Shown here: in pieces, positions 6,662 to 29,286 of the stretch
Layout: every line of letters begins with the position of its first letter
Position numbering within the stretch: the stretch's first letter is position 1
Position numbers and translations under genes: made by a program
NCBI RefSeq assembly: GCF_015207255.1
Contig: NZ_JADEXG010000019.1
Coordinates: 1-64,000 of the forward strand
DNA from: Vasconcelosia minhoensis LEGE 07310
GTDB lineage: Bacteria > Cyanobacteriota > Cyanobacteriia > Phormidesmidales > Phormidesmidaceae
DNA length: 64,000 bases
Direction: 5' to 3'
Notes under the pieces: model-generated
Seen by the model: the letters and a program-made list of their open reading frames with translations, nothing else
Databases searched by the model: none
What the model was told of the DNA's origin: nothing

Positions 6662-9070
6662 TTAGCTCTGCGACTGATGGCTGGACCGATACTGTTCCGG
6701 CCAGCTTTCGGGCAAAATTTCAGTCGGGGCCAGGTTTTCACTGGTTTCTGATGCTCCATCGGGTGCCGCTGGGTCGGTCAGCCCCAGGAAAACGGCTTGA
6801 TTGTGAGGCAGAGTAGCCAGGTTGAGCTGCTCTAAATTGGTCAAAGCTTCTTGGGTAGAGCGATAGCGCTGGTTGAAATCATAGCGCACCATACGGTTAA
6901 TCACCGCCGCTAGCTCAATCGACAGCCCCACAACTTTATAAGTCCAGATGATTTCACCGGTCGAACTTCGCTGAATGGCGTGGGGTGGGAGCCCGGTCAA
7001 GGCCTCAATGGCGGTGATACCCAGGGCATAGAGGTCGCTGCTAAAGTTTGGCAGACCGGCTGACTGCTCGCTGGGCATATAGCCCTGGGTGCCAATTCCA
7101 ATCGTTGAGGTCACCCGCGCGCTGGTATCAGCCAGCTGATTAGAAATCTGCTTAACAGCACCAAAATCAATCAGCACAAAGCGACCATCCGCAGTCCGGC
7201 GAATAATGTTTGAAGGTTTGATATCGCGATGGATGACACCCTGCTGATGGACAAAGCCAATCACCGGCAGCAGGTCGATCAGCATTTCAGTAACGGCACG
7301 CTGCGACATTGCCGACTGTTGACCTAGCAGCTCCCGCAGCAAGACGCCTTCGACCCGTTCCTGAACCAGATAAAAAGAATAGTTGACTTCGAAATAGGCC
7401 AGTAGCCGAGGAATTTGTTCATGCTCACCCAGTCGCTCCAGGGTATCGGCCTCAGCTCTAAAGAGCCGCTGAGCCATCTGGTGAGACTGGGGATTGTTGC
7501 TGACAATCTTCAGCTGCTTGACGACGCAGGTTGGCGCACCCGGACGTTGAGTATCTGAGGCCAGGTAGGTTTCACTAAAGCCACCCGCCCCTAAGACCTG
7601 AAGAATACGGTAGCGATCGCACAGCAGCGTGCCAATAATATCAGCCTGTCGCAGCACCAGCAAATCCTGAAAATCATCTTGTTGGCTGATAATTTCCTGC
7701 ACAATCGGCGAGGTCACATAGCGCGCCAGCGTGCTGCGGAACCGCTTACGCCTAGACTGCCCAGCTACAAAGCCTGAGCCCAGATCGACCAGCGCCATGC
7801 TGACGATGCCCATCATCGGCGTAGCCGTCATCAAGATCACCTGCCCTCCGACCAGAGCACCGTAGCCCACCAGCCCCCAGCAGACTAGGCTGGCCATGGC
7901 CCAGCTAAAGCGCTGCCAGGGCTTATGGGACAGCTGCATCAGCCCGATTACGCCAATTCCCAACAGCAGCACGGCAATCCCATTCAGCCATGGCAACCGA
8001 ATCAACGGCCGAATGGCCCGCCCAGCGGCGGCAGTCGCCACCGTATTAGCCAGGATCTCTACCCCTGCCATAGATTGGGGGTAGAGCAGCGTTTGGGAAA
8101 AGGGAGCCGAATGAAAATCCTGATGAATAGTTGCCGTCGTGCCAATCAGCACCGTCTTGTCTTTGAAGAAGGCACCAGAGTCCAGCTGATTTTGCCAGGG
8201 GTCAGGGTCAAGTACGTACCAGAACGGAATTTGGGTAAACGTCCCACCGGGGCCATAGAAATAGATGCTCTCTCCCACATCCGGTGGCGGCTCGATTTTG
8301 GCCGCGCTCAGCGTCGCCTGGGCGAAACTGAGAATTGAGCGATCGGAGCTAGGCCCTGAATCTATCTCTGGGCCAGGCGCTGCCCCGGTTAGCCGCTGTT
8401 CAGACTGATGGAGCGCCGATAGGAAAGCCTCACTAAGTCGATGAATCCTGCCATCGGGCTCAACCAGAAAATTGATGGCGCCGATCTGCACTGGCGTCTC
8501 TCGGAACCGGAGCAGCGGCAGTAGCGGCTGGATTAGCTCCCCCTGCCGGATATCGATATTGCCATATTCCGCCGCCAGGACGACGCGATCGCCATAGGTT
8601 TGCAGTGTCTGGGTCAGCGCTGCGTCATCGGCTTCGCCGTAGGTACTGGGTGCTGAAAAGACCACATCTAGAGCCACCGCCCTAGCTCCCGCCCGCAACA
8701 GTTTTTCAATCGCGGTGGCATAGGCCTGCCGCTGCCAGGGCCAGGCCTGAATGGACTGTAGCTGGGGATAGCGCTGGGGATCGTTGAGATAGTGCTGGCC
8801 CTGGGCTAAAGACTCTTCATCGATCGCCAGGATGACCACGTCATCAGGCGGCGACACCGGCCCTCTCAGTTCAAAAAAAAGGGTCTGTACCTGCCGCTCC
8901 CAAAGCGCCACTAGCCCCAAATTTAAGCCGGTTGCGGCCGCCGCTGCTGAGATACAGAAGCCCAACAGCGCCAATCGCCAATGGCGAGTCAGCAGGTTTC
9001 GTCGCCAGTAGTGAGCAAGCTTATCTTCCGGGGTCAGCGGTGTCGTTTCCCCATTCGGCGGCACATCCAT
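6662..9070 (-). CDS. CHASE2-domain serine/threonine protein kinase
   Basis: An 802-residue membrane receptor kinase. One transmembrane helix near residues 33-55 leads into a CHASE2 extracytoplasmic sensor domain to about residue 345 (DDVVILAIDEESL, AVALDVVFSAPS, VLIGTTA). Three more membrane helices lie near 355-445. The cytoplasmic kinase has the glycine loop GAGGFSETYLAS, the ATP lysine in CVVKQL, the catalytic loop HRDIKPSNII, the DFGAVK metal site and GTQGYMPSEQ, so it should be active. CHASE2 sensing coupled to Ser/Thr kinases or adenylyl cyclases is known from cyanobacteria; the stimulus is not. A signalling link with the neighbouring FecR protein is an inference from position. Confidence 0.93.
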   Translation of the reverse strand: MDVPPNGETTPLTPEDKLAHYWRRNLLTRHWRLALLGFCISAAAAATGLNLGLVALWERQVQTLFFELRGPVSPPDDVVILAIDEESLAQGQHYLNDPQRYPQLQSIQAWPWQRQAYATAIEKLLRAGARAVALDVVFSAPSTYGEADDAALTQTLQTYGDRVVLAAEYGNIDIRQGELIQPLLPLLRFRETPVQIGAINFLVEPDGRIHRLSEAFLSALHQSEQRLTGAAPGPEIDSGPSSDRSILSFAQATLSAAKIEPPPDVGESIYFYGPGGTFTQIPFWYVLDPDPWQNQLDSGAFFKDKTVLIGTTATIHQDFHSAPFSQTLLYPQSMAGVEILANTVATAAAGRAIRPLIRLPWLNGIAVLLLGIGVIGLMQLSHKPWQRFSWAMASLVCWGLVGYGALVGGQVILMTATPMMGIVSMALVDLGSGFVAGQSRRKRFRSTLARYVTSPIVQEIISQQDDFQDLLVLRQADIIGTLLCDRYRILQVLGAGGFSETYLASDTQRPGAPTCVVKQLKIVSNNPQSHQMAQRLFRAEADTLERLGEHEQIPRLLAYFEVNYSFYLVQERVEGVLLRELLGQQSAMSQRAVTEMLIDLLPVIGFVHQQGVIHRDIKPSNIIRRTADGRFVLIDFGAVKQISNQLADTSARVTSTIGIGTQGYMPSEQSAGLPNFSSDLYALGITAIEALTGLPPHAIQRSSTGEIIWTYKVVGLSIELAAVINRMVRYDFNQRYRSTQEALTNLEQLNLATLPHNQAVFLGLTDPAAPDGASETSENLAPTEILPESWPEQYRSSHQSQS

Positions 9071-22740: not shown

Positions 22741-22817
22741 AGCTAACGCCGCCATCACCGGTGACAAAATCGCAGCGAAGCGGAGATTTTGGCATCCGGT
22801 GCATGGCCTTGTTAGAA
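22741..22817 (-). other. attC-like integron recombination site (attC2)
   Basis: A 77-base imperfect palindrome. On the minus strand it opens with TTCTAAC and ends with GTTAGCT, the places of the R'' and R' boxes. Inside, GGCCATGCACCGG pairs with CCGGTGATGGC leaving unpaired bases, and AAAATC pairs with GATTTT around a short loop. This is the architecture of an attC site: outer simple site, inner simple site with extrahelical bases, variable end. The outer boxes depart by one or two bases from RYYYAAC and GTTRRRY. It would close the restriction-modification cassette; an insertion sequence now separates the two. Confidence 0.6.
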
Positions 22818-22819
22818 CC
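22811..22819. repeat. Left copy of 9-bp direct repeat flanking the insertion sequence
   Basis: GTTAGAACC here is repeated exactly at 24578-24586, immediately outside the two inverted ends of the transposon. This is the expected footprint of target duplication on insertion. The left copy overlaps the outer box of the attC-like site. Confidence 0.8.
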
Positions 22820-24577
22820 GACATTCCGCAGGTTGACAGGGAATAAAAAATGTGGGGTTAGTCTAGGCTAGAAAACGTTCCTTCTGGCGGTAGCGACTTC
22901 CCTTGCAGATTGAGAATCTAGACCATCTGGGCTTAGTAGCCGGACTCATTGATGAACTTGGCCTAGTAGAGCTGACCGATGAGCAGATTGAGCCCCATTG
23001 CTTGGAGCACGTCAGTGCTGGCCAAGTGGTGAAAGCAATGATTTTGAACGCACTAGGCTTTCTCAGTGCACCGTTGTATCTGTTCAGCGAATTTTTCGAA
23101 AGTAAAGCGGTCTCTCACTTATTGGGAGCGGAGGTCGAGGCTCATCACTTGAATGATGACCGTTTGGGTCGTGTCTTAGATGAACTCTACGCGGCGGGCA
23201 CCACCTCATTTTTTCTGAAGGTGGCCCTGCAGGCAGTCAAACGCTTTGAAATTGACATTCAGCAGCGCCATCTCGATGCCACCTCTATTTCGGTGCAGGG
23301 TGAGTATCCGCCCCCCTGCGAAGCCGGAGCGGAAGCCAGGCCTGAGTTGAAGCCCTCCAGTGAGACCCTGGCAGAACCGACTCCCCTGCGGCTCTGTCGC
23401 GGGTATTCCCGAGACCATCGTCCGGATTTGAAACAGTTTTTGATGACCCTGGTGTGTGCTGCCGATGGCGGCGTGCCGTTGTGGTTGCAGGTGGCCAGCG
23501 GCAATGAACATGACACTCAGCAGTTTGCCAGGGTGATGAAAGCGTTTGGAGACCAGTGGACCAGCGATGGCATCTTTGTCATGGATGCGGCCTTCTATAG
23601 CGAGCCTAATTTGCAGCAGGTAGGCTCGCTGGGCTGGTTATCGCGGGTGCCGCTGACGCTGAGCGCGGCTCAAGACCTGGTGCACTGCGAGGTTACAACG
23701 CTGGTTGAGGTGCCCACAGGCCGCAAGGATTACCGAATGTGGGAGGTAGAGCAGACCTATGGCGAGGTGCCCCAGCGCTGGATACTAGTGGAAAGCCAGA
23801 CCCGCAAAGCCAATGCCGCCCTCTGGCAACCCGAATTAGACAAGCTCGAGAGCCGGCTCAATCGCCAGCTGAAATCGCTTACTCAGCAGGTGTTTGCCTG
23901 TAAACCCGATGCCCTAGAGGCCTTGATGCAGTTTCAAGATGGCCTAGAGATACATCAACTCACTCAGGTTTCCGTCCAGAGCGTGCGAGCCAAGCGCCCC
24001 CCCGGTCGTCCGGCCAAATCCGCCGAACTTACCCCGGTGCAGGGCTATCGGCTGCAGGCCACGCTAGCGCGTACCGCCACGGCTGAAGACACCTTAAGCC
24101 GTCAGCGCAGTCGCTTCATTCTCGCCACCAATCAACTCGACAAAACCCTTTGGCCAGCTCCAAAGTGCTTGAGCGAATACAAAGGGCAACAGTCCGTAGA
24201 ACGAGGGTTTCGCTTCCTCAAAGACCCGCTCTTCTTTGCCAGTAGCGTCTTTGTCAAAAAGCCGCAGCGCGTCGAAGCCTTGGCTCTCATCATGGCCCTT
24301 ACCCTGATGGTCTATACCCTCGCCGAACGGAAACTGCGACAGGCTCTGGCAGCCCAGCACCAAACCGTGCACGACCAACGCAAACAGCCCACCGCCAAGC
24401 CGACCTTCCGCTGGATTATGCAGAAGTTTCAAGGCATCCACTGGGTCACCCTGGACGGGCAACGGCTGATTAGCAATCTGAATGATGAGCGGCGGTTGAT
24501 TATTCACCTCTTGGGACCACCCGTTGAACGCTATTATCATGCATCCGGTTAATTATTTGTCAACCTGCGGAATGTAG
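22820..24577 (+). mobile_element. Apparently intact IS1634-type insertion sequence
   Basis: An element of 1,758 bases bounded by matching inverted ends: ACATTCCGCAGGTTGACA at 22821-22838 and its exact reverse complement at 24558-24575. Both ends are followed on the outside by the 9-base repeat GTTAGAACC. It encodes one full-length transposase. The perfect 18-base match of the ends and the matching direct repeats suggest that it inserted recently. It landed at the junction of the restriction-modification gene stop and the attC2 site. Confidence 0.9.
22903..24552 (+). CDS. IS1634 family transposase (DUF4277 N-terminal domain)
   Basis: A 549-residue DDE transposase. The N-terminal region (IENLDHLGLVAGLIDELGLV, then HVSAGQVVKAMILNALGFL) is the DUF4277 type found in the IS1634 group. 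Likely catalytic acids are the Asp in LDATSISVQGEY, the Asp in VMDAAFYSEPNL and the Glu in QQSVERGFRFLKDP. No frameshift or stop interrupts it. The start is the TTG at 22903, because a stop codon lies only four codons upstream and the family begins near MEIENLDHLG. It should catalyse excision and insertion of its own element. Confidence 0.93.
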   Translation: MQIENLDHLGLVAGLIDELGLVELTDEQIEPHCLEHVSAGQVVKAMILNALGFLSAPLYLFSEFFESKAVSHLLGAEVEAHHLNDDRLGRVLDELYAAGTTSFFLKVALQAVKRFEIDIQQRHLDATSISVQGEYPPPCEAGAEARPELKPSSETLAEPTPLRLCRGYSRDHRPDLKQFLMTLVCAADGGVPLWLQVASGNEHDTQQFARVMKAFGDQWTSDGIFVMDAAFYSEPNLQQVGSLGWLSRVPLTLSAAQDLVHCEVTTLVEVPTGRKDYRMWEVEQTYGEVPQRWILVESQTRKANAALWQPELDKLESRLNRQLKSLTQQVFACKPDALEALMQFQDGLEIHQLTQVSVQSVRAKRPPGRPAKSAELTPVQGYRLQATLARTATAEDTLSRQRSRFILATNQLDKTLWPAPKCLSEYKGQQSVERGFRFLKDPLFFASSVFVKKPQRVEALALIMALTLMVYTLAERKLRQALAAQHQTVHDQRKQPTAKPTFRWIMQKFQGIHWVTLDGQRLISNLNDERRLIIHLLGPPVERYYHASG

Positions 24578-24586
24578 GTTAGAACC
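24578..24586. repeat. Right copy of 9-bp direct repeat flanking the insertion sequence
   Basis: GTTAGAACC, identical to 22811-22819. Its last base is also the last base of the stop codon of the leftward restriction-modification gene, so the original gene end abutted the attC site directly. Confidence 0.8.
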
Positions 24587-27282
24587 TATTCTTCGTCCAC
24601 TGAGTCATCCGCTGTTACTTGTGGTAACTCGTAGTCACGGCCATCAATTACATGATCAAACTCTCTCCAGGCTTCCTTTAGAGCATGGTTTGATTCTTTT
24701 AGGTCACTTCTCGCCCCAACAATCTCACTAACCAACCTTTTTTGCGTATCGATGTTTTCTGGAAAACAAATCTCCAGACTCTCAAAATCGCCTACCTGGG
24801 TCCTGCGTCTATTGCTATGTCCAGTCGTGATAGCTCGAAATGCCCTTTGGTAGTACCGACTTCTCAACAAGCAAGATAGGAAATCAGGGTCTATTCGTTC
24901 ATCTACCACTTGGTATATGGGGAACTCTTTAGTAACTAATGCACCATTGAAGTCAGTTGGCACCACCGATATACAACCTTTCCAGAGGTCAATCCCAGAA
25001 AAAACGACATCGCCGGCAGTAGCTGCATACCAAATTGAAGAGCTATCACCAAAGTACATGCCCAGCCACTCAGGAGGATTGTTTCCCTTGCCGGCTTCAC
25101 GCGGTCGAATGTCTCCAGTTTGAGACAAAGTCATTACAACTACTGGCTCATCGGGATAATCCTCGGGATGAACGATATTTTCTCGACGAACCATGACCTC
25201 GGAGATAGGAACCTTGATCCATCCCTCAGGAACATGGCTCTGCTCCTCCTTCTTAAAGAGAAAATATTTTGGGTCCATTCTGTGGCTGCAGTGTGCTTCC
25301 CACATATCAAGGACGTCAATTGACATGCAGTCAGGAAGCTCCGAGCCGTCGTAGCCCTCACTATTCTCTGAGAACCTTAAATACTCACCGTATATGGTGC
25401 CTTGCTGATCATCCTCTAGTCGTCCATCCTGATGTGCTTTGTATAGATCATTTTTTGCGCTAAGAACGCCGGTTGTTGTGTAGCCAACATTGATGGCCTC
25501 CGCCAGAAAAACATGATACCGGATACCATTTAACGCTGCGCGGATAGCTATATCTTCATCAACCCCTGACGCCACCTCCCTGTCAAAAACTCTATCAAAA
25601 CGAGCTTTTTCTTCTAATGAGAATTTTCTGAAGAATAAGATAGATGTTTTATTCTGCGCACCAGATTTCCTAAAAGCATGATCAGGGAGTGAAACAATCG
25701 CTTCTATTTGTCCGTTTTTAACGAGAAACCTTCTAGTTTTCGGACAATTAGAAAGTTCTCCATGGTTGTTGAATAGACCGTCAGGAAGAATCAAGCCGAA
25801 CCTACCATTGGGCTCAAGGAAATCTACACAACGCTCAATTATCGCATGCTCTGATGGGACTTTAGACCTGCCATCCGCCACTTGAAAGTTTTCTAGTGTG
25901 TTGCTTCCAAGTAAGTCGTCATCACCGTCAGCTACTTCGTCTCCAAACGGTGGATTTCCTACGACCTTTGTAAATTTGTTTCCGAATGGCGACAGTCTAG
26001 TTAGATTAAAACGTTGATCGAGACAACTCCTATCACCTTCGATATTTGTATGACCGTCATGATGTAATAATAGGTTTATTTTACAAATTCTGGCCAATAT
26101 CTCATGTATTTCAATACCAAAAACTTTGTGGAGAGCAAAGTCATTTTTATAACGGGATAGCTCTGCTCGGCCTGCATACTTAATGTCAAGCGAGTGCCAA
26201 ACTTGCAGCAAGACCTCTAGCAGGAAACCACCACTGCCAGATGTGGGGTCAATAACGTAATCATTATTGTCGATGTCAAGCATAGCAACCGTAAACCTGG
26301 CGAGTTGGCGCATAGTAAAATACTGCCCTAGCTCACCTCGGAAAACAGATCCAAAAAAGCTTTCAAATGCTGCTCCAATACTATCGGCAGAAGCATCTGT
26401 GATGCTTACCGCTTGCAGCACTTTCACCACTTCAAATATTTTGCCATCAGACAATTCGAGCTTTGTACCTTCAGGAAAGATAGTGCGGTCATTTCTACAC
26501 GCCTGCTCAAATAGAGAATGAATCTTAGTTGCAACGGAAGCTGTGGTCTCGCTGCTCCCAACTTGAAATTGCCTAGGGGCATCATTCGGTGTGGTTCGCT
26601 CATCCTCCACCTTTGCAAAAAGCAACTTGCTCCATTGATCAAAAGCGGTCAGCGGGTCTCTCTTCCCGCCTGCCCAAATAATGGAGTGGGCTCGTTTTAT
26701 TTTTGCTTCTAACTGCCTGGCGCTGACCGGAGCAATATCGTTATTTCCAGGGCCAGCTATGTAGGTAAACTCAGAAACCTCACCATATTGTTCCGGAAGA
26801 TGTCGCCTACTCCCTTTGATATTCTCCGCTCGCTCACCCGCTGGATAATTCTGAACATCAAAAACGGTAGAATTCTCATAATCCTCGTAAAGACCGAATT
26901 CTGCTCTCAAGGAGTTAGAGTTGCCAAAAAGCTGCTCTACTCCCTGCGCTACGTTCGTTGCGTTTTGGCCCGTCGATTTGCATTCAACAACAATATAGGG
27001 GGTTCTGCATGCGTCCTCTTTGTAAACGACAATATCCGCCCAGTCGTTTGGTGTTCGCCTCGGGACCTTCACTTCAGTTTTTATTCGAGTGGCAGGATAG
27101 CCCTTCTCAAGCACGAGAAAGCTGATAGTGAAAGCTCTTACCCACTCTTCGGGATCAGACCATACGTATTTCTTACGCTGTTTGACATTATAGGTGATCG
27201 AGTTCCCGTCTATCTCGATGATACCCCGTGCCAACGCCTTGATTATAAGTTCATTTCCTTCTGCTTCTTGCTTCGAGTACAT
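24586..27282 (-). CDS. Single-chain restriction-modification enzyme (nuclease-N6-adenine methylase-specificity fusion, type IIG-like)
   Basis: An 898-residue fusion. Residues about 30-180 form a type I HsdR-like nuclease domain with Asp83, Glu100 and Lys102 (the last two in ECK) as a PD-(D/E)xK centre. Residues about 250-600 are an HsdM-type methylase: motif I DPTSGSGGF near 345 and motif IV NPPF near 443. From about 670 a HsdS-like target recognition domain follows (PEGWIKVPISEV), ending in a long helix (RLVSEIVGARSDLKESNHAL). No helicase or translocase motor is present, so it is not a classical type I system; the domain order is that of type IIG enzymes. Codons are clearly more AT-rich than in the flanking genes, suggesting transfer. 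It occupies the second position of the integron-like array and ends directly at an attC-type site. Confidence 0.88.
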   Translation of the reverse strand: MYSKQEAEGNELIIKALARGIIEIDGNSITYNVKQRKKYVWSDPEEWVRAFTISFLVLEKGYPATRIKTEVKVPRRTPNDWADIVVYKEDACRTPYIVVECKSTGQNATNVAQGVEQLFGNSNSLRAEFGLYEDYENSTVFDVQNYPAGERAENIKGSRRHLPEQYGEVSEFTYIAGPGNNDIAPVSARQLEAKIKRAHSIIWAGGKRDPLTAFDQWSKLLFAKVEDERTTPNDAPRQFQVGSSETTASVATKIHSLFEQACRNDRTIFPEGTKLELSDGKIFEVVKVLQAVSITDASADSIGAAFESFFGSVFRGELGQYFTMRQLARFTVAMLDIDNNDYVIDPTSGSGGFLLEVLLQVWHSLDIKYAGRAELSRYKNDFALHKVFGIEIHEILARICKINLLLHHDGHTNIEGDRSCLDQRFNLTRLSPFGNKFTKVVGNPPFGDEVADGDDDLLGSNTLENFQVADGRSKVPSEHAIIERCVDFLEPNGRFGLILPDGLFNNHGELSNCPKTRRFLVKNGQIEAIVSLPDHAFRKSGAQNKTSILFFRKFSLEEKARFDRVFDREVASGVDEDIAIRAALNGIRYHVFLAEAINVGYTTTGVLSAKNDLYKAHQDGRLEDDQQGTIYGEYLRFSENSEGYDGSELPDCMSIDVLDMWEAHCSHRMDPKYFLFKKEEQSHVPEGWIKVPISEVMVRRENIVHPEDYPDEPVVVMTLSQTGDIRPREAGKGNNPPEWLGMYFGDSSSIWYAATAGDVVFSGIDLWKGCISVVPTDFNGALVTKEFPIYQVVDERIDPDFLSCLLRSRYYQRAFRAITTGHSNRRRTQVGDFESLEICFPENIDTQKRLVSEIVGARSDLKESNHALKEAWREFDHVIDGRDYELPQVTADDSVDEE

Positions 27283-27419
27283 GGTAACCTTTTTTTTCGG
27301 AGTGCAATGCTCTGAATCCTATATTCACCCGAACCTCGAGTCAAATCCTATTTCAGAGCGTGGCACTCTAAAAAAATAAATTCGGTAGTTTGCAGGATAG
27401 CTAGGCGGATGAGGGAGGG

Positions 27420-27506
27420 TTCTAACGCCTGAGTTGAGGGGCTTTTGTGGAGCGTAGCGCGAAGCGCGTAGCGGAACAAAAGTCCCTCTCCAACGATTTG
27501 TTGGGC
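27420..27506 (-). other. attC-like integron recombination site (attC1)
   Basis: An 87-base imperfect palindrome lying 33 bases after the stop of the GNAT gene. On the minus strand it starts with GCCCAAC, a perfect RYYYAAC box, and ends with GTTAGAA, one base off GTTRRRY. Inner arms GTTGGAGAGGG and CCCCTCAAC pair leaving extrahelical bases, CTTTTG pairs with CAAAAG, and a self-complementary centre of GCGCTTCGCGC type closes the structure. Length and box layout fit attC sites. It marks the boundary between cassette 1 (GNAT) and cassette 2 (restriction-modification). Confidence 0.75.
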
Positions 27507-27539
27507 GGCAATTTCGCCGACTCGTACTGTTGCTGGAGA

Positions 27540-28022
27540 TTATCCAATTGAACTCTTCCTTTTTTCGAGCCGATAACGCAAGAACGTTTTATCTGCGACC
27601 TCTAATTGCCCATTTTTACGGAAGCCTAACCGCAGCAAGCCTTTAATATTCTTCCTCGTGGGCGGGAGCAGCACCGTGACCGCCTCGAAACCCATTTCTC
27701 CAAAAGCTCGACGAATTATTTCGCTGTAGAGGATTTTCCCTAATCCCCAATGATCCGGGTGCAGTACTAATCCCAAGTCAGCTTCCCCGTTCTCGCGTTG
27801 TAATCCACCCCAGCCGACAAACTGACCATCAACGACAAACGCCCAGGGACCGTAACCATCTTCTTTCCATAGCCGTTCTTTTGCAGCAATAAATTCCTCG
27901 CACTCGCTTTCCCCGAAACAACTGGTTGCCAAAGGCATATGCCGCCGCACCAACGGATTATTCATTAGTTCGATAATGTCAGAGCTATCGACTTCCGTTA
28001 GCCGCTTAAATTCAGTAGTCAT
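27540..28022 (-). CDS. GNAT family N-acetyltransferase (integron cassette 1)
   Basis: A 160-residue acetyltransferase of the RimJ/RimL-like branch: ELMNNPLVRRHMPLA near the start, then WAFVVDGQFVGWGGLQ, the acetyl-CoA segment LHPDHWGLGKILYSEIIRRA and GLLRLGFRKNGQLEV. Acetyltransferases are among the commonest products of integron cassettes. The start is the ATG at 28022; a GTG at 28025 is also in frame. The gene sits between a candidate attI boundary (GTTGGGC read leftward from 28045) and attC1, giving a cassette of about 620 bases, and it is transcribed away from intI. The substrate is unknown. Confidence 0.88.
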   Translation of the reverse strand: MTTEFKRLTEVDSSDIIELMNNPLVRRHMPLATSCFGESECEEFIAAKERLWKEDGYGPWAFVVDGQFVGWGGLQRENGEADLGLVLHPDHWGLGKILYSEIIRRAFGEMGFEAVTVLLPPTRKNIKGLLRLGFRKNGQLEVADKTFLRYRLEKRKSSIG

Positions 28023-28038
28023 CACTGTTCACTTTGCC

Positions 28039-28063
28039 GCCCAACTATTGATTAGAGGGAAAG
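28039..28063 (-). other. Candidate attI/cassette 1 junction
   Basis: On the minus strand the box GTTGGGC (28045-28039) matches GTTRRRY exactly and is followed by GGC, the same GTTGGGCGGC string found at the other end of cassette 1 (27500-27509, plus strand). It lies between the integrase gene and the first cassette, where attI belongs. The left half of attI is not recognisable by eye, since attI sites vary between integrons. Confidence 0.5.
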
Positions 28064-28183
28064 TTTCCACCTAAGATCCCAACACGGGTAAATAGGTGGA
28101 AATGTTTCAGCCTAAGATCCTTTCTGGGGTAAATAGGTGGAATTACGTCCGCCTAAGATCCCGATACAGGTAAATAGGCGGAA
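28064..28183 (+). repeat. Three 41-bp tandem repeats next to intI promoter
   Basis: The core CTAAGATCC begins at 28071, 28112 and 28153, an exact 41-base period. Each copy continues with a variable five or six bases and then GGTAAATAGG. Copies 1 and 3 are also inverted repeats: TTCCACCTA with TAGGTGGAA in copy 1, and TCCGCCTA with TAGGCGGA in copy 3, so the A-to-G change is matched by a T-to-C change on the other arm. They lie between cassette 1 and the integrase -10 box. They could be integrase-binding repeats of attI or operators. Confidence 0.85.
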
Positions 28184-28191
28184 TGTTTCAG

Positions 28192-28197
28192 TATAAT
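28192..28197 (+). promoter_or_regulatory. Candidate -10 box of the intI promoter
   Basis: A perfect TATAAT lies 66 bases before the intI start and right after the last 41-bp repeat. No good -35 element is present at the usual spacing; the third repeat covers that position, so activation or repression through the repeat is plausible. Confidence 0.45.
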
Positions 28198-28263
28198 CAG
28201 CCCTCCGGTTCTAGGTCGCATCTGCTTAAGATTTATTTGTCATCTTTTTTCAGGTGCCTCCCA

Positions 28264-29286
28264 ATGCCGGCAGAGCCTCGTTCCAAAAAGTTACTCGACC
28301 AGGTTCGAGACGCTGTTCGCCTAAAGCATTATTCGTATCGCACGGAGCAAACCTATGTGCAGTGGATTCGTCGCTACATCCTGTTTCATAGCAAGCGCCA
28401 TCCCCAAGAGATGGGTGTCCCCCACATTGAAGCCTTTCTTACCCATCTAGCCGTTCAAGGGCAGGTTTGCGGCCTCCACTCAGAATCAGGCATTGAGTGC
28501 CCTGCTCTTCTTGTATCGACTGGTTTTGCAGATGCCCCTGGACGATCGGATTGATGCTATTCGAGCAAAGCCTTCGCGTAAGCTTCCAACCGTTTTAACC
28601 CCTGAAGAAGTGCGGGCAGTGATTCAGCAAATGTCAGGGGTGCATCGACTAATTGTGCAGTTGCTCTATGGTAGTGGCTTGCGCTTGCGGGAGGCGATGC
28701 AGCTCCGCATCAAGGATTTGGATTTTCCTCAGTCTCAGGTCGTTGTGCGAGACGCTAAGGGTCAGGAAAGCCGAGTCACGATGTTACCTAGCAGCGTGCA
28801 GACAGCGCTTAAGGAACACCTCCAGCAGGTCAAGCGCATCCATCAGCAAGATTTAAGTCAGGGATATGGAGCAGTCACTCTACCCTTTGCGTTAGCTCGA
28901 AAGTATCCGAATGCCAATCGTCAGTGGATTTGGCAGTTTGTCTTTCCCGCCTCCTTGCGATGTAAAGATCCTCGCAGTGGAGCGATTGTCCGCTTTCACC
29001 TGCATGAAAGCGGATTGCAAAAGGCTGTAAAGCAAGCTGTGCGAAATGCTGGAGTAGAAAAACGAGTCGGCTGCCACACCTTTCGCCATAGCTTTGCGAC
29101 CCACCTATTGGAAAGTGGCTACGATATCCGCACGATTCAAGAGTTGCTGGGGCACAAAGATGTTAAGACCACAATGATTTATACCAAAGGTATTTCAGAG
29201 CACGAGACAACATTGTCAGGTCTGAAATGCCTTTGAATGTCCTCAATCGTGGTGGGCGTGGAGTGCGGAGCCCTCTGGATATCTAG
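28264..29286 (+). pseudogene. intI: Integron integrase IntI, inactivated by a frameshift and an insertion
   Basis: The first frame from ATG 28264 encodes a typical IntI N-terminus (KLLDQVRDAVRLKHYSYRTE, YVQWIRRYILFHSKRHP). At 28466-28468 one extra T shifts the frame; without it the text would read [19 protein letters not shown]. The second frame carries the catalytic domain: Arg in [10 protein letters not shown], the IntI-specific extra segment ([20 protein letters not shown]), [27 protein letters not shown] and the nucleophile in MIYT. About 50 bases are then inserted at 29186, and the expected end VLNRGGRGVRSPLDI is read out of frame at 29239-29286. Removing both lesions restores 323 codons, a normal IntI length. 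The integrase-only segment makes the IntI identity firm against XerC/D. It is divergent from the cassettes, as in known integrons. Confidence 0.92.
29186..29238 (+). repeat. Small palindromic insertion in the 3' end of intI
   Basis: AAAGGTATTTCAGA (29186-29199) and TCTGAAATGCCTTT (29221-29234) are inverted repeats with one mismatch around a 21-base loop. The block separates the catalytic tyrosine codon region from the displaced intI C-terminus and adds a net 50 bases. No target duplication is evident, and no second copy was seen in the window. Confidence 0.7.

What the first reader, a model, noticed from the sequence alone, without database searches (positions are those of the whole stretch)
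24586..27282. A complete one-gene restriction-modification system as an integron cassette
Nuclease (Asp83, Glu100, Lys102), N6-adenine methylase (DPTSGSGGF, NPPF) and specificity domain are fused in a single 898-residue chain with no motor domain. The gene is AT-rich, fills almost all of the space between two attC-type sites and ends directly at one. At about 2.8 kb it is a large cassette and would deliver full phage defence in one step.
Basis: partly seen in the sequence, partly recalled or inferred. Interest (0 to 1): 0.72.

Follow-up and report, generated by a model that had tools for sequence, protein, structure and literature searches.

The report
One-gene restriction-modification integron cassette
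A cyanobacterium carries, as the second cassette of a small broken integron, one gene that fuses a DNA cutter, a DNA methylator and a DNA-reading domain; it is a new, widely scattered member of a known class of restriction enzymes, with a conserved pair of possible control sites in its promoter.

Summary
24586-27282(-) encodes 898 aa: PD-(D/E)XK nuclease (E70/D83/E100/K102, matching BsaXI's four proven REase-domain residues), gamma-class N6-adenine methylase (DPTSGSGGF, NPPF), one C-terminal half-S specificity domain, no motor. It is the second cassette of a chromosomal integron inserted between miaE and a GNAT gene that are adjacent in relatives. Corrections: the "attC" at the stop codon is only a duplicated 8-bp core; an IS1634-family element split it off, and the complete attC lies 1.77 kb further on. 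The cassette is 2.9 kb without the IS. The integrase carries a frameshift and a 3' insertion, so the platform is probably dead. The gene family is not integron-specific: full-length relatives (48-67%) lie in Nostoc, a Thermoplasmata archaeon, Collinsella and two tailed-phage contigs, none seen beside intI, in varied contexts. Their specificity domain is as conserved as the methylase, suggesting a shared target. Window and Nostoc promoters share two palindromes, AGAG-N7-CTCT-like, exactly 56 bp apart. Best reading: a HaeIV-like single-chain Type IIG/IIB enzyme acting as a homodimer on a symmetric bipartite site, possibly GAG-N7-CTC, which would make it self-regulating (untested). New member of a known kind; restriction cassettes are already known.

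The parts
24586..27282 (-). single-chain restriction-modification gene, 898 aa: nuclease ~1-187, helical connector ~188-313, N6-adenine methylase ~314-565, linker ~566-680, one target recognition domain ~685-842, one long C-terminal helix 844-880
   Evidence: full-length relatives
27283..27425 (-). 5' leader of the RM cassette, with a promoter-like stretch (TTGACT -35-like) between two palindromes
27355..27369 (.). upstream palindrome AGAGTGCCACGCTCT (GAG-N7-CTC)
27299..27313 (.). downstream palindrome AGAGCATTGCACTCC (GAG-N7-CTC), 56 bp from the first; same spacing in Nostoc L072
27420..27506 (-). attC of cassette 1 (GNAT); crossover G27426|T27425 starts the RM cassette
24578..24585 (-). GTTCTAAC, R'' core of the RM cassette's attC, one copy of the 8-bp target duplication, directly after the stop codon
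22819..24577 (+). IS1634-family insertion sequence inside the RM cassette's attC (transposase 22903-24552)
22741..22818 (-). complete attC of the RM cassette with the second copy of the core; crossover G22747|T22746
   Evidence: z -5.9
27426..28044 (-). cassette 1, GNAT acetyltransferase gene 27540-28025
28045..28185 (-). attI-like region with three 41-bp direct repeats (28057-28179)
28183..29236 (+). integron integrase intI, disrupted: one extra T shifts the frame; palindromic insert near the 3' end

Best explanation
It is a single-chain Type IIG (Type IIB-like) restriction-modification enzyme captured as an integron cassette. The C-terminal half-S domain reads one half-site. Two chains pair, probably through the C-terminal helix, to read a symmetric bipartite site, as HaeIV is thought to do. 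The gamma-class methylase puts m6A on one adenine per half-site, and the N-terminal PD-(D/E)XK domain cuts nearby when sites are unmethylated; no ATP-driven translocation is involved. The gene has a promoter of its own, flanked by two conserved palindromes that probably serve as operators. Shown here: domains, catalytic residues, cassette borders, insertion site, relatives, palindromes. Inferred: dimerisation, cutting, phage defence, promoter and operator function.
For: Best PDB match by sequence is RM.BsaXI (E 2e-28 single sequence, 2e-46 with a 4-row profile, residues 25-573), also the top fold match (E 1e-25, probability 1.00, though TM only ~0.4). All four REase-domain residues needed for cleavage by BsaXI (E73, D90, E105, K107; PMC11997821) align to E70, D83, E100, K102, invariant in all 10 sequences of A4. 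Methylase family hits. Half-S: matches residues 5-196 of the 412-aa S subunit 3okg. HaeIV precedent: single chain, symmetric bipartite site, acts as homodimer (PMC4081073, PMC3874165). Half-S homodimers give symmetric sites, e.g. EcoDXXI deltaC, TCA-N8-TGA. Integron: intI, attI-like repeats, two attCs with matched cores, miaE-GNAT adjacent in relatives. Low GC.
Against: No activity data. The model has mean pLDDT 75 and global TM to BsaXI near 0.4, so only domain-level similarity is shown. NCBIfam gives no hit over any cut-off. The BsaXI 'paddle', which carries two residues needed for BsaXI cleavage, has no counterpart in the sequence alignment. Dimerisation and site symmetry are inferred only from the single half-S domain; MmeI-like monomer binding is not excluded.
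Confidence: 0.78

Rival explanations
1. MmeI/BpuSI-like Type IIG enzyme: the single recognition domain reads one continuous asymmetric site, methylates one strand and cuts on one side; the promoter palindromes belong to an unrelated regulator.
For: Same domain order with one recognition module; BpuSI is among the fold matches.
Against: The recognition domain matches Type I S subunits; the sequence is nearest BsaXI and HsdM; MmeI_Mtase is below its Pfam cut-off.
Confidence: 0.25
2. An active methylase with a silent or lost nuclease function: an orphan or regulatory methyltransferase.
For: The nuclease is less conserved than methylase and recognition domain (53-61% against 64-76% for the methylase).
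Against: E70, D83, E100 and K102 are invariant in all ten aligned proteins, including an archaeon and phages.
Confidence: 0.12
3. Part of a multi-gene system (Type I, BREX or MADS) that lost its partners.
For: Similarity to HsdM and MAD2 (MAD2 E 1e-54).
Against: In the window and in the relatives read, the gene stands without an S, R or helicase partner; MAD2 score 185 against a cut-off of 720.
Confidence: 0.05

Closest known systems
HaeIV (single-chain Type IIB/IIG)
   Same: One chain with nuclease, gamma methylase and one specificity domain; proposed homodimer on a symmetric bipartite site (PMC4081073, PMC3874165)
BsaXI (Type IIB, RM + S)
   Same: Closest solved relative over nuclease and methylase; all four proven REase-domain residues conserved
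   Different: BsaXI has a separate S subunit with two recognition domains and a paddle; here half an S is fused and no paddle is evident in the alignment
AloI/TstI type (R-M-S with two recognition domains, ~1250 aa)
   Same: Single-chain fusion in the order R-M-S
   Different: Only one recognition domain; 898 aa. Cyanobacterial relatives of two-domain length (1141-1201 aa) exist at 31-32%
Restriction and antiphage cassettes of integrons (Xanthomonas, archaeal integrons, Vibrio)
   Same: Restriction/methylation genes as cassettes are reported (PMC12444791, PMC9668308)
   Different: Cyanobacterial integron, one-gene enzyme, own promoter-like leader with paired palindromes, broken integrase

Membership tests
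Type IIG/IIC combined RM enzymes | N-terminal PD-(D/E)XK cleavage domain | tested here: met
   HSDR_N_2 hit; E70/D83/E100/K102 align with BsaXI catalytic residues; fitting strands and helices in the model
Type IIG/IIC combined RM enzymes | gamma-class N6-adenine methylase (NPPY/F/W) in the same chain | tested here: met
   N6_Mtase E 5e-29; DPTSGSGGF then NPPF
Type IIG/IIC combined RM enzymes | specificity module at the C-terminus or as a separate subunit | tested here: met
   half-S at 665-867 matches S subunits
Type IIG/IIC combined RM enzymes | AdoMet-dependent or stimulated cleavage at a fixed distance | not testable with these tools
   needs purified protein
Type IIB | bipartite site, cleavage on both sides | not testable with these tools
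   the GAG-N7-CTC palindromes in the promoter are only a hint
Type IIB, AloI/TstI subgroup | two recognition domains (TRD1-CR1-TRD2-CR2) | tested here: not met
   only one recognition domain and one long C-terminal helix
Type IIB, HaeIV-like | one specificity domain, homodimer, symmetric site | tested here: inconclusive
   one domain confirmed; dimer and site untested; HaeIV sequence not available
Type I / Type ISP | ATP-dependent motor (helicase) domain | tested here: not met
   no helicase family hit; no neighbouring hsdR
MADS (MAD2) | NCBIfam NF047738 above cut-off 720 and partner genes | tested here: not met
   185.5 bits; no partners
Integron gene cassette | bounded by attC sites whose cores match, next to attI and intI | tested here: met
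   attC1, attC2, core pairing, intI TIGR02249 344 bits
Integron gene cassette | currently mobile | tested here: inconclusive
   intI frameshifted and 3'-disrupted; second copy truncated; IS inside attC; recombination cannot be assayed here

The most novel reading that the evidence does not exclude
The two promoter palindromes are the enzyme's own recognition sites: a half-S homodimer recognises, methylates and cuts GAG-N7-CTC (9 bp between the adenines, the same as Type I EcoAI) and represses its own promoter by binding its two sites 56 bp apart, so a one-gene cassette arrives with a built-in delay and dose control. A common target would be kept across cyanobacteria, an archaeon and phages, because the recognition domain is as conserved as the methylase.
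Probability: 0.25. Interest if true: 0.65.

Novelty: new member of a known kind. Interest (0 to 1): 0.42.

Why it matters
A complete restriction-modification function in one cassette-sized gene would be easy to pass on by integrons, phages and plasmids, and this family is found in two domains of life and in phages. If the promoter sites are its own target, it would be a one-protein case of the old question how a self-contained restriction system avoids killing a new host, and its target could be read from its promoter.

Tried and rejected
Single-sequence scan of genome contigs found no relative; the two-row alignment did. Viral scan with A2 found none, with A3 two, with the recognition domain only the same two records. 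Nucleotide search of plasmids: no match. A host regulon for the palindrome: the own genome has 3 sites at <=1 mismatch, two of them here, and the reversed control gives 4, so there is no sign of a regulon; Nostoc has one further exact site, 13 bp before a WecG/TagA-like glycosyltransferase gene, about what I estimate chance allows, so neither supported nor excluded. The palindrome pair is absent upstream of the archaeal, Collinsella and phage copies, so it is not a family-wide feature. MADS, BREX, Type I and Type ISP membership rejected (see tests). GAG-N7-CTC counts in window and loci show no clear avoidance.

Full report
Observation. The ORF at 24586-27282 on the minus strand is 898 aa. Pfam finds HSDR_N_2 at 44-145 and N6_Mtase at 299-555 and no helicase. 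The nearest solved structure by sequence is RM.BsaXI, also the top fold match of the AlphaFold2 model (mean pLDDT 75). In BsaXI, alanine at E73, D90, E105 or K107 abolishes cleavage (PMC11997821); in the alignment these are E70, D83, E100 and K102 here, invariant in ten aligned relatives. The methylase motifs DPTSGSGGF and NPPF are as stated. The C-terminus matches only the first half of Type I S subunits (3okg 5-196 of 412) and ends in one long helix (844-880): half an S subunit.

Integron. IntI (TIGR02249, 344 bits) lies at 28183-29236 with an attI-like region of three 41-bp repeats. Cassette 1 (28044-27426) encodes a GNAT acetyltransferase; cassette 2 (27425-22747) is the RM gene. The attCs fold better than shuffles (z -3.0 and -5.9), and each R'' core pairs with the first bases of its own cassette, which fixes the borders (sequence read). 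Next to the stop codon stands only GTTCTAAC: an IS1634-family element (22819-24577) inserted there and duplicated these 8 bp; the complete attC follows beyond it. Without the IS and the duplication the cassette is 2912 bp. In eight relatives miaE and the 187-aa GNAT gene are neighbours; in the two read directly, 56 and 35 bp separate the aligned parts. Here the integron lies between them. IntI has one extra T against the second copy of this genome, giving two frames, and, read by eye, a roughly 50-bp palindromic insert interrupts the usual C-terminus. The second copy (contig C69) lacks an internal part. So the cassette is probably stranded, unless an intact integrase acts in trans.

Relatives. 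Full-length single-chain relatives: Nostoc sp. WHI (67%), a Thermoplasmata archaeon (57-58%), two viral contigs (62%), Collinsella aerofaciens (48-49%). No intI was seen beside any of them in the DNA read; attC sites were looked for by eye only. Contexts differ: Nostoc beside a TrbI-like gene; the archaeal copy between 63-bp direct repeats, 89% alike; Collinsella directly after a RelB antitoxin gene among transposases; the phage copies between terminase and portal genes, directly after a ParD/ParE pair whose stop overlaps the RM start. The gene is rare in cyanobacteria: only the own genome in 386 phylum and 390 class genomes (the samples overlap), one of 218 in the family of G149 (that is the Nostoc genome of L072). 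More distant cyanobacterial relatives are RM plus separate S, or fusions of two-domain length.

Domain conservation. Against the window protein, the recognition domain is 72, 62, 73 and 72% identical in Nostoc, the archaeon and the two phages, close to the methylase (76, 64, 70, 71%) and above the nuclease (61, 55, 54, 53%); in Collinsella 53, 57 and 38%. Specificities of MmeI-family enzymes are described as widely diverged (PMC4081073), so a common target is the simplest reading here (inference).

Promoter. The leader carries two palindromes, TTAGAGTGCCACGCTCTGA and TCAGAGCATTGCACTCCGA, at -92 and -36; Nostoc has TCAGAGTATGCTACTCTGA and TTAGAGTACATTACTCTAA at -89 and -33. The spacing is 56 bp in both, while the DNA between does not align well. 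A TTGAC -35-like element lies between the palindromes in both (read by eye). Only three sites at <=1 mismatch of the 19-mer occur in the 5.26-Mb genome, two of them here. All four share GAG-N7-CTC, against about 0.2 such sites per kb in the loci held. A half-S homodimer should read a symmetric bipartite site (HaeIV; EcoDXXI deltaC), and 9 bp between the adenines equals EcoAI (GAG-N7-GTCA). Hence the self-regulation hypothesis; it rests on two promoters and no binding data, and the sites are absent from the other relatives.

Mechanism. Most likely a HaeIV-like homodimer: methylation of both half-sites, cutting of unmethylated DNA near the site, no motor. Shown: sequence, domains, catalytic residues, borders. 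Inferred: dimer, cleavage, defence, operators.

Novelty. Single-chain R-M-S enzymes, including one with a single specificity domain, are known, and restriction genes as cassettes are reported (PMC12444791, PMC9668308). This is a new member of a known kind; the conserved recognition domain, the spread over two domains of life and phages, and the paired promoter sites are the interesting parts.

Noticed in passing
window 28045-28185; L103-L106: The 143-bp attI-like stretch (three 41-bp repeats) recurs at many places in relatives and at contig C125 of this genome; four copies examined have no intI within about 2.5 kb. Orphan attI-like sites or a dispersed repeat.
   Followed up: partly
L002 (contig C69 of the same genome): A second integron platform with the same attI-like repeats, an attC-like site and a ParA-like gene; its integrase lacks an internal part.
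   Followed up: partly
L080:1354-4772, L081:4287-7706, L039:7752-10607: The single-chain RM gene directly follows toxin-antitoxin genes (ParD/ParE in two phage contigs, RelB antitoxin in Collinsella), with overlapping or abutting reading frames; the antitoxin may control the RM gene.
   Followed up: partly
L073:5843-5905 and 8842-8904: 63-bp direct repeats (89% alike) flank the RM gene in a Thermoplasmata archaeon, 3.0 kb apart, as if left by an insertion.
   Followed up: no
window 29180-29235: A roughly 50-bp imperfect palindrome interrupts the conserved C-terminus of intI; no second copy found in the genome.
   Followed up: partly
L111:2781-2799: In Nostoc sp. WHI one further exact copy of the promoter palindrome lies just before a WecG/TagA-like glycosyltransferase gene.
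   Followed up: partly
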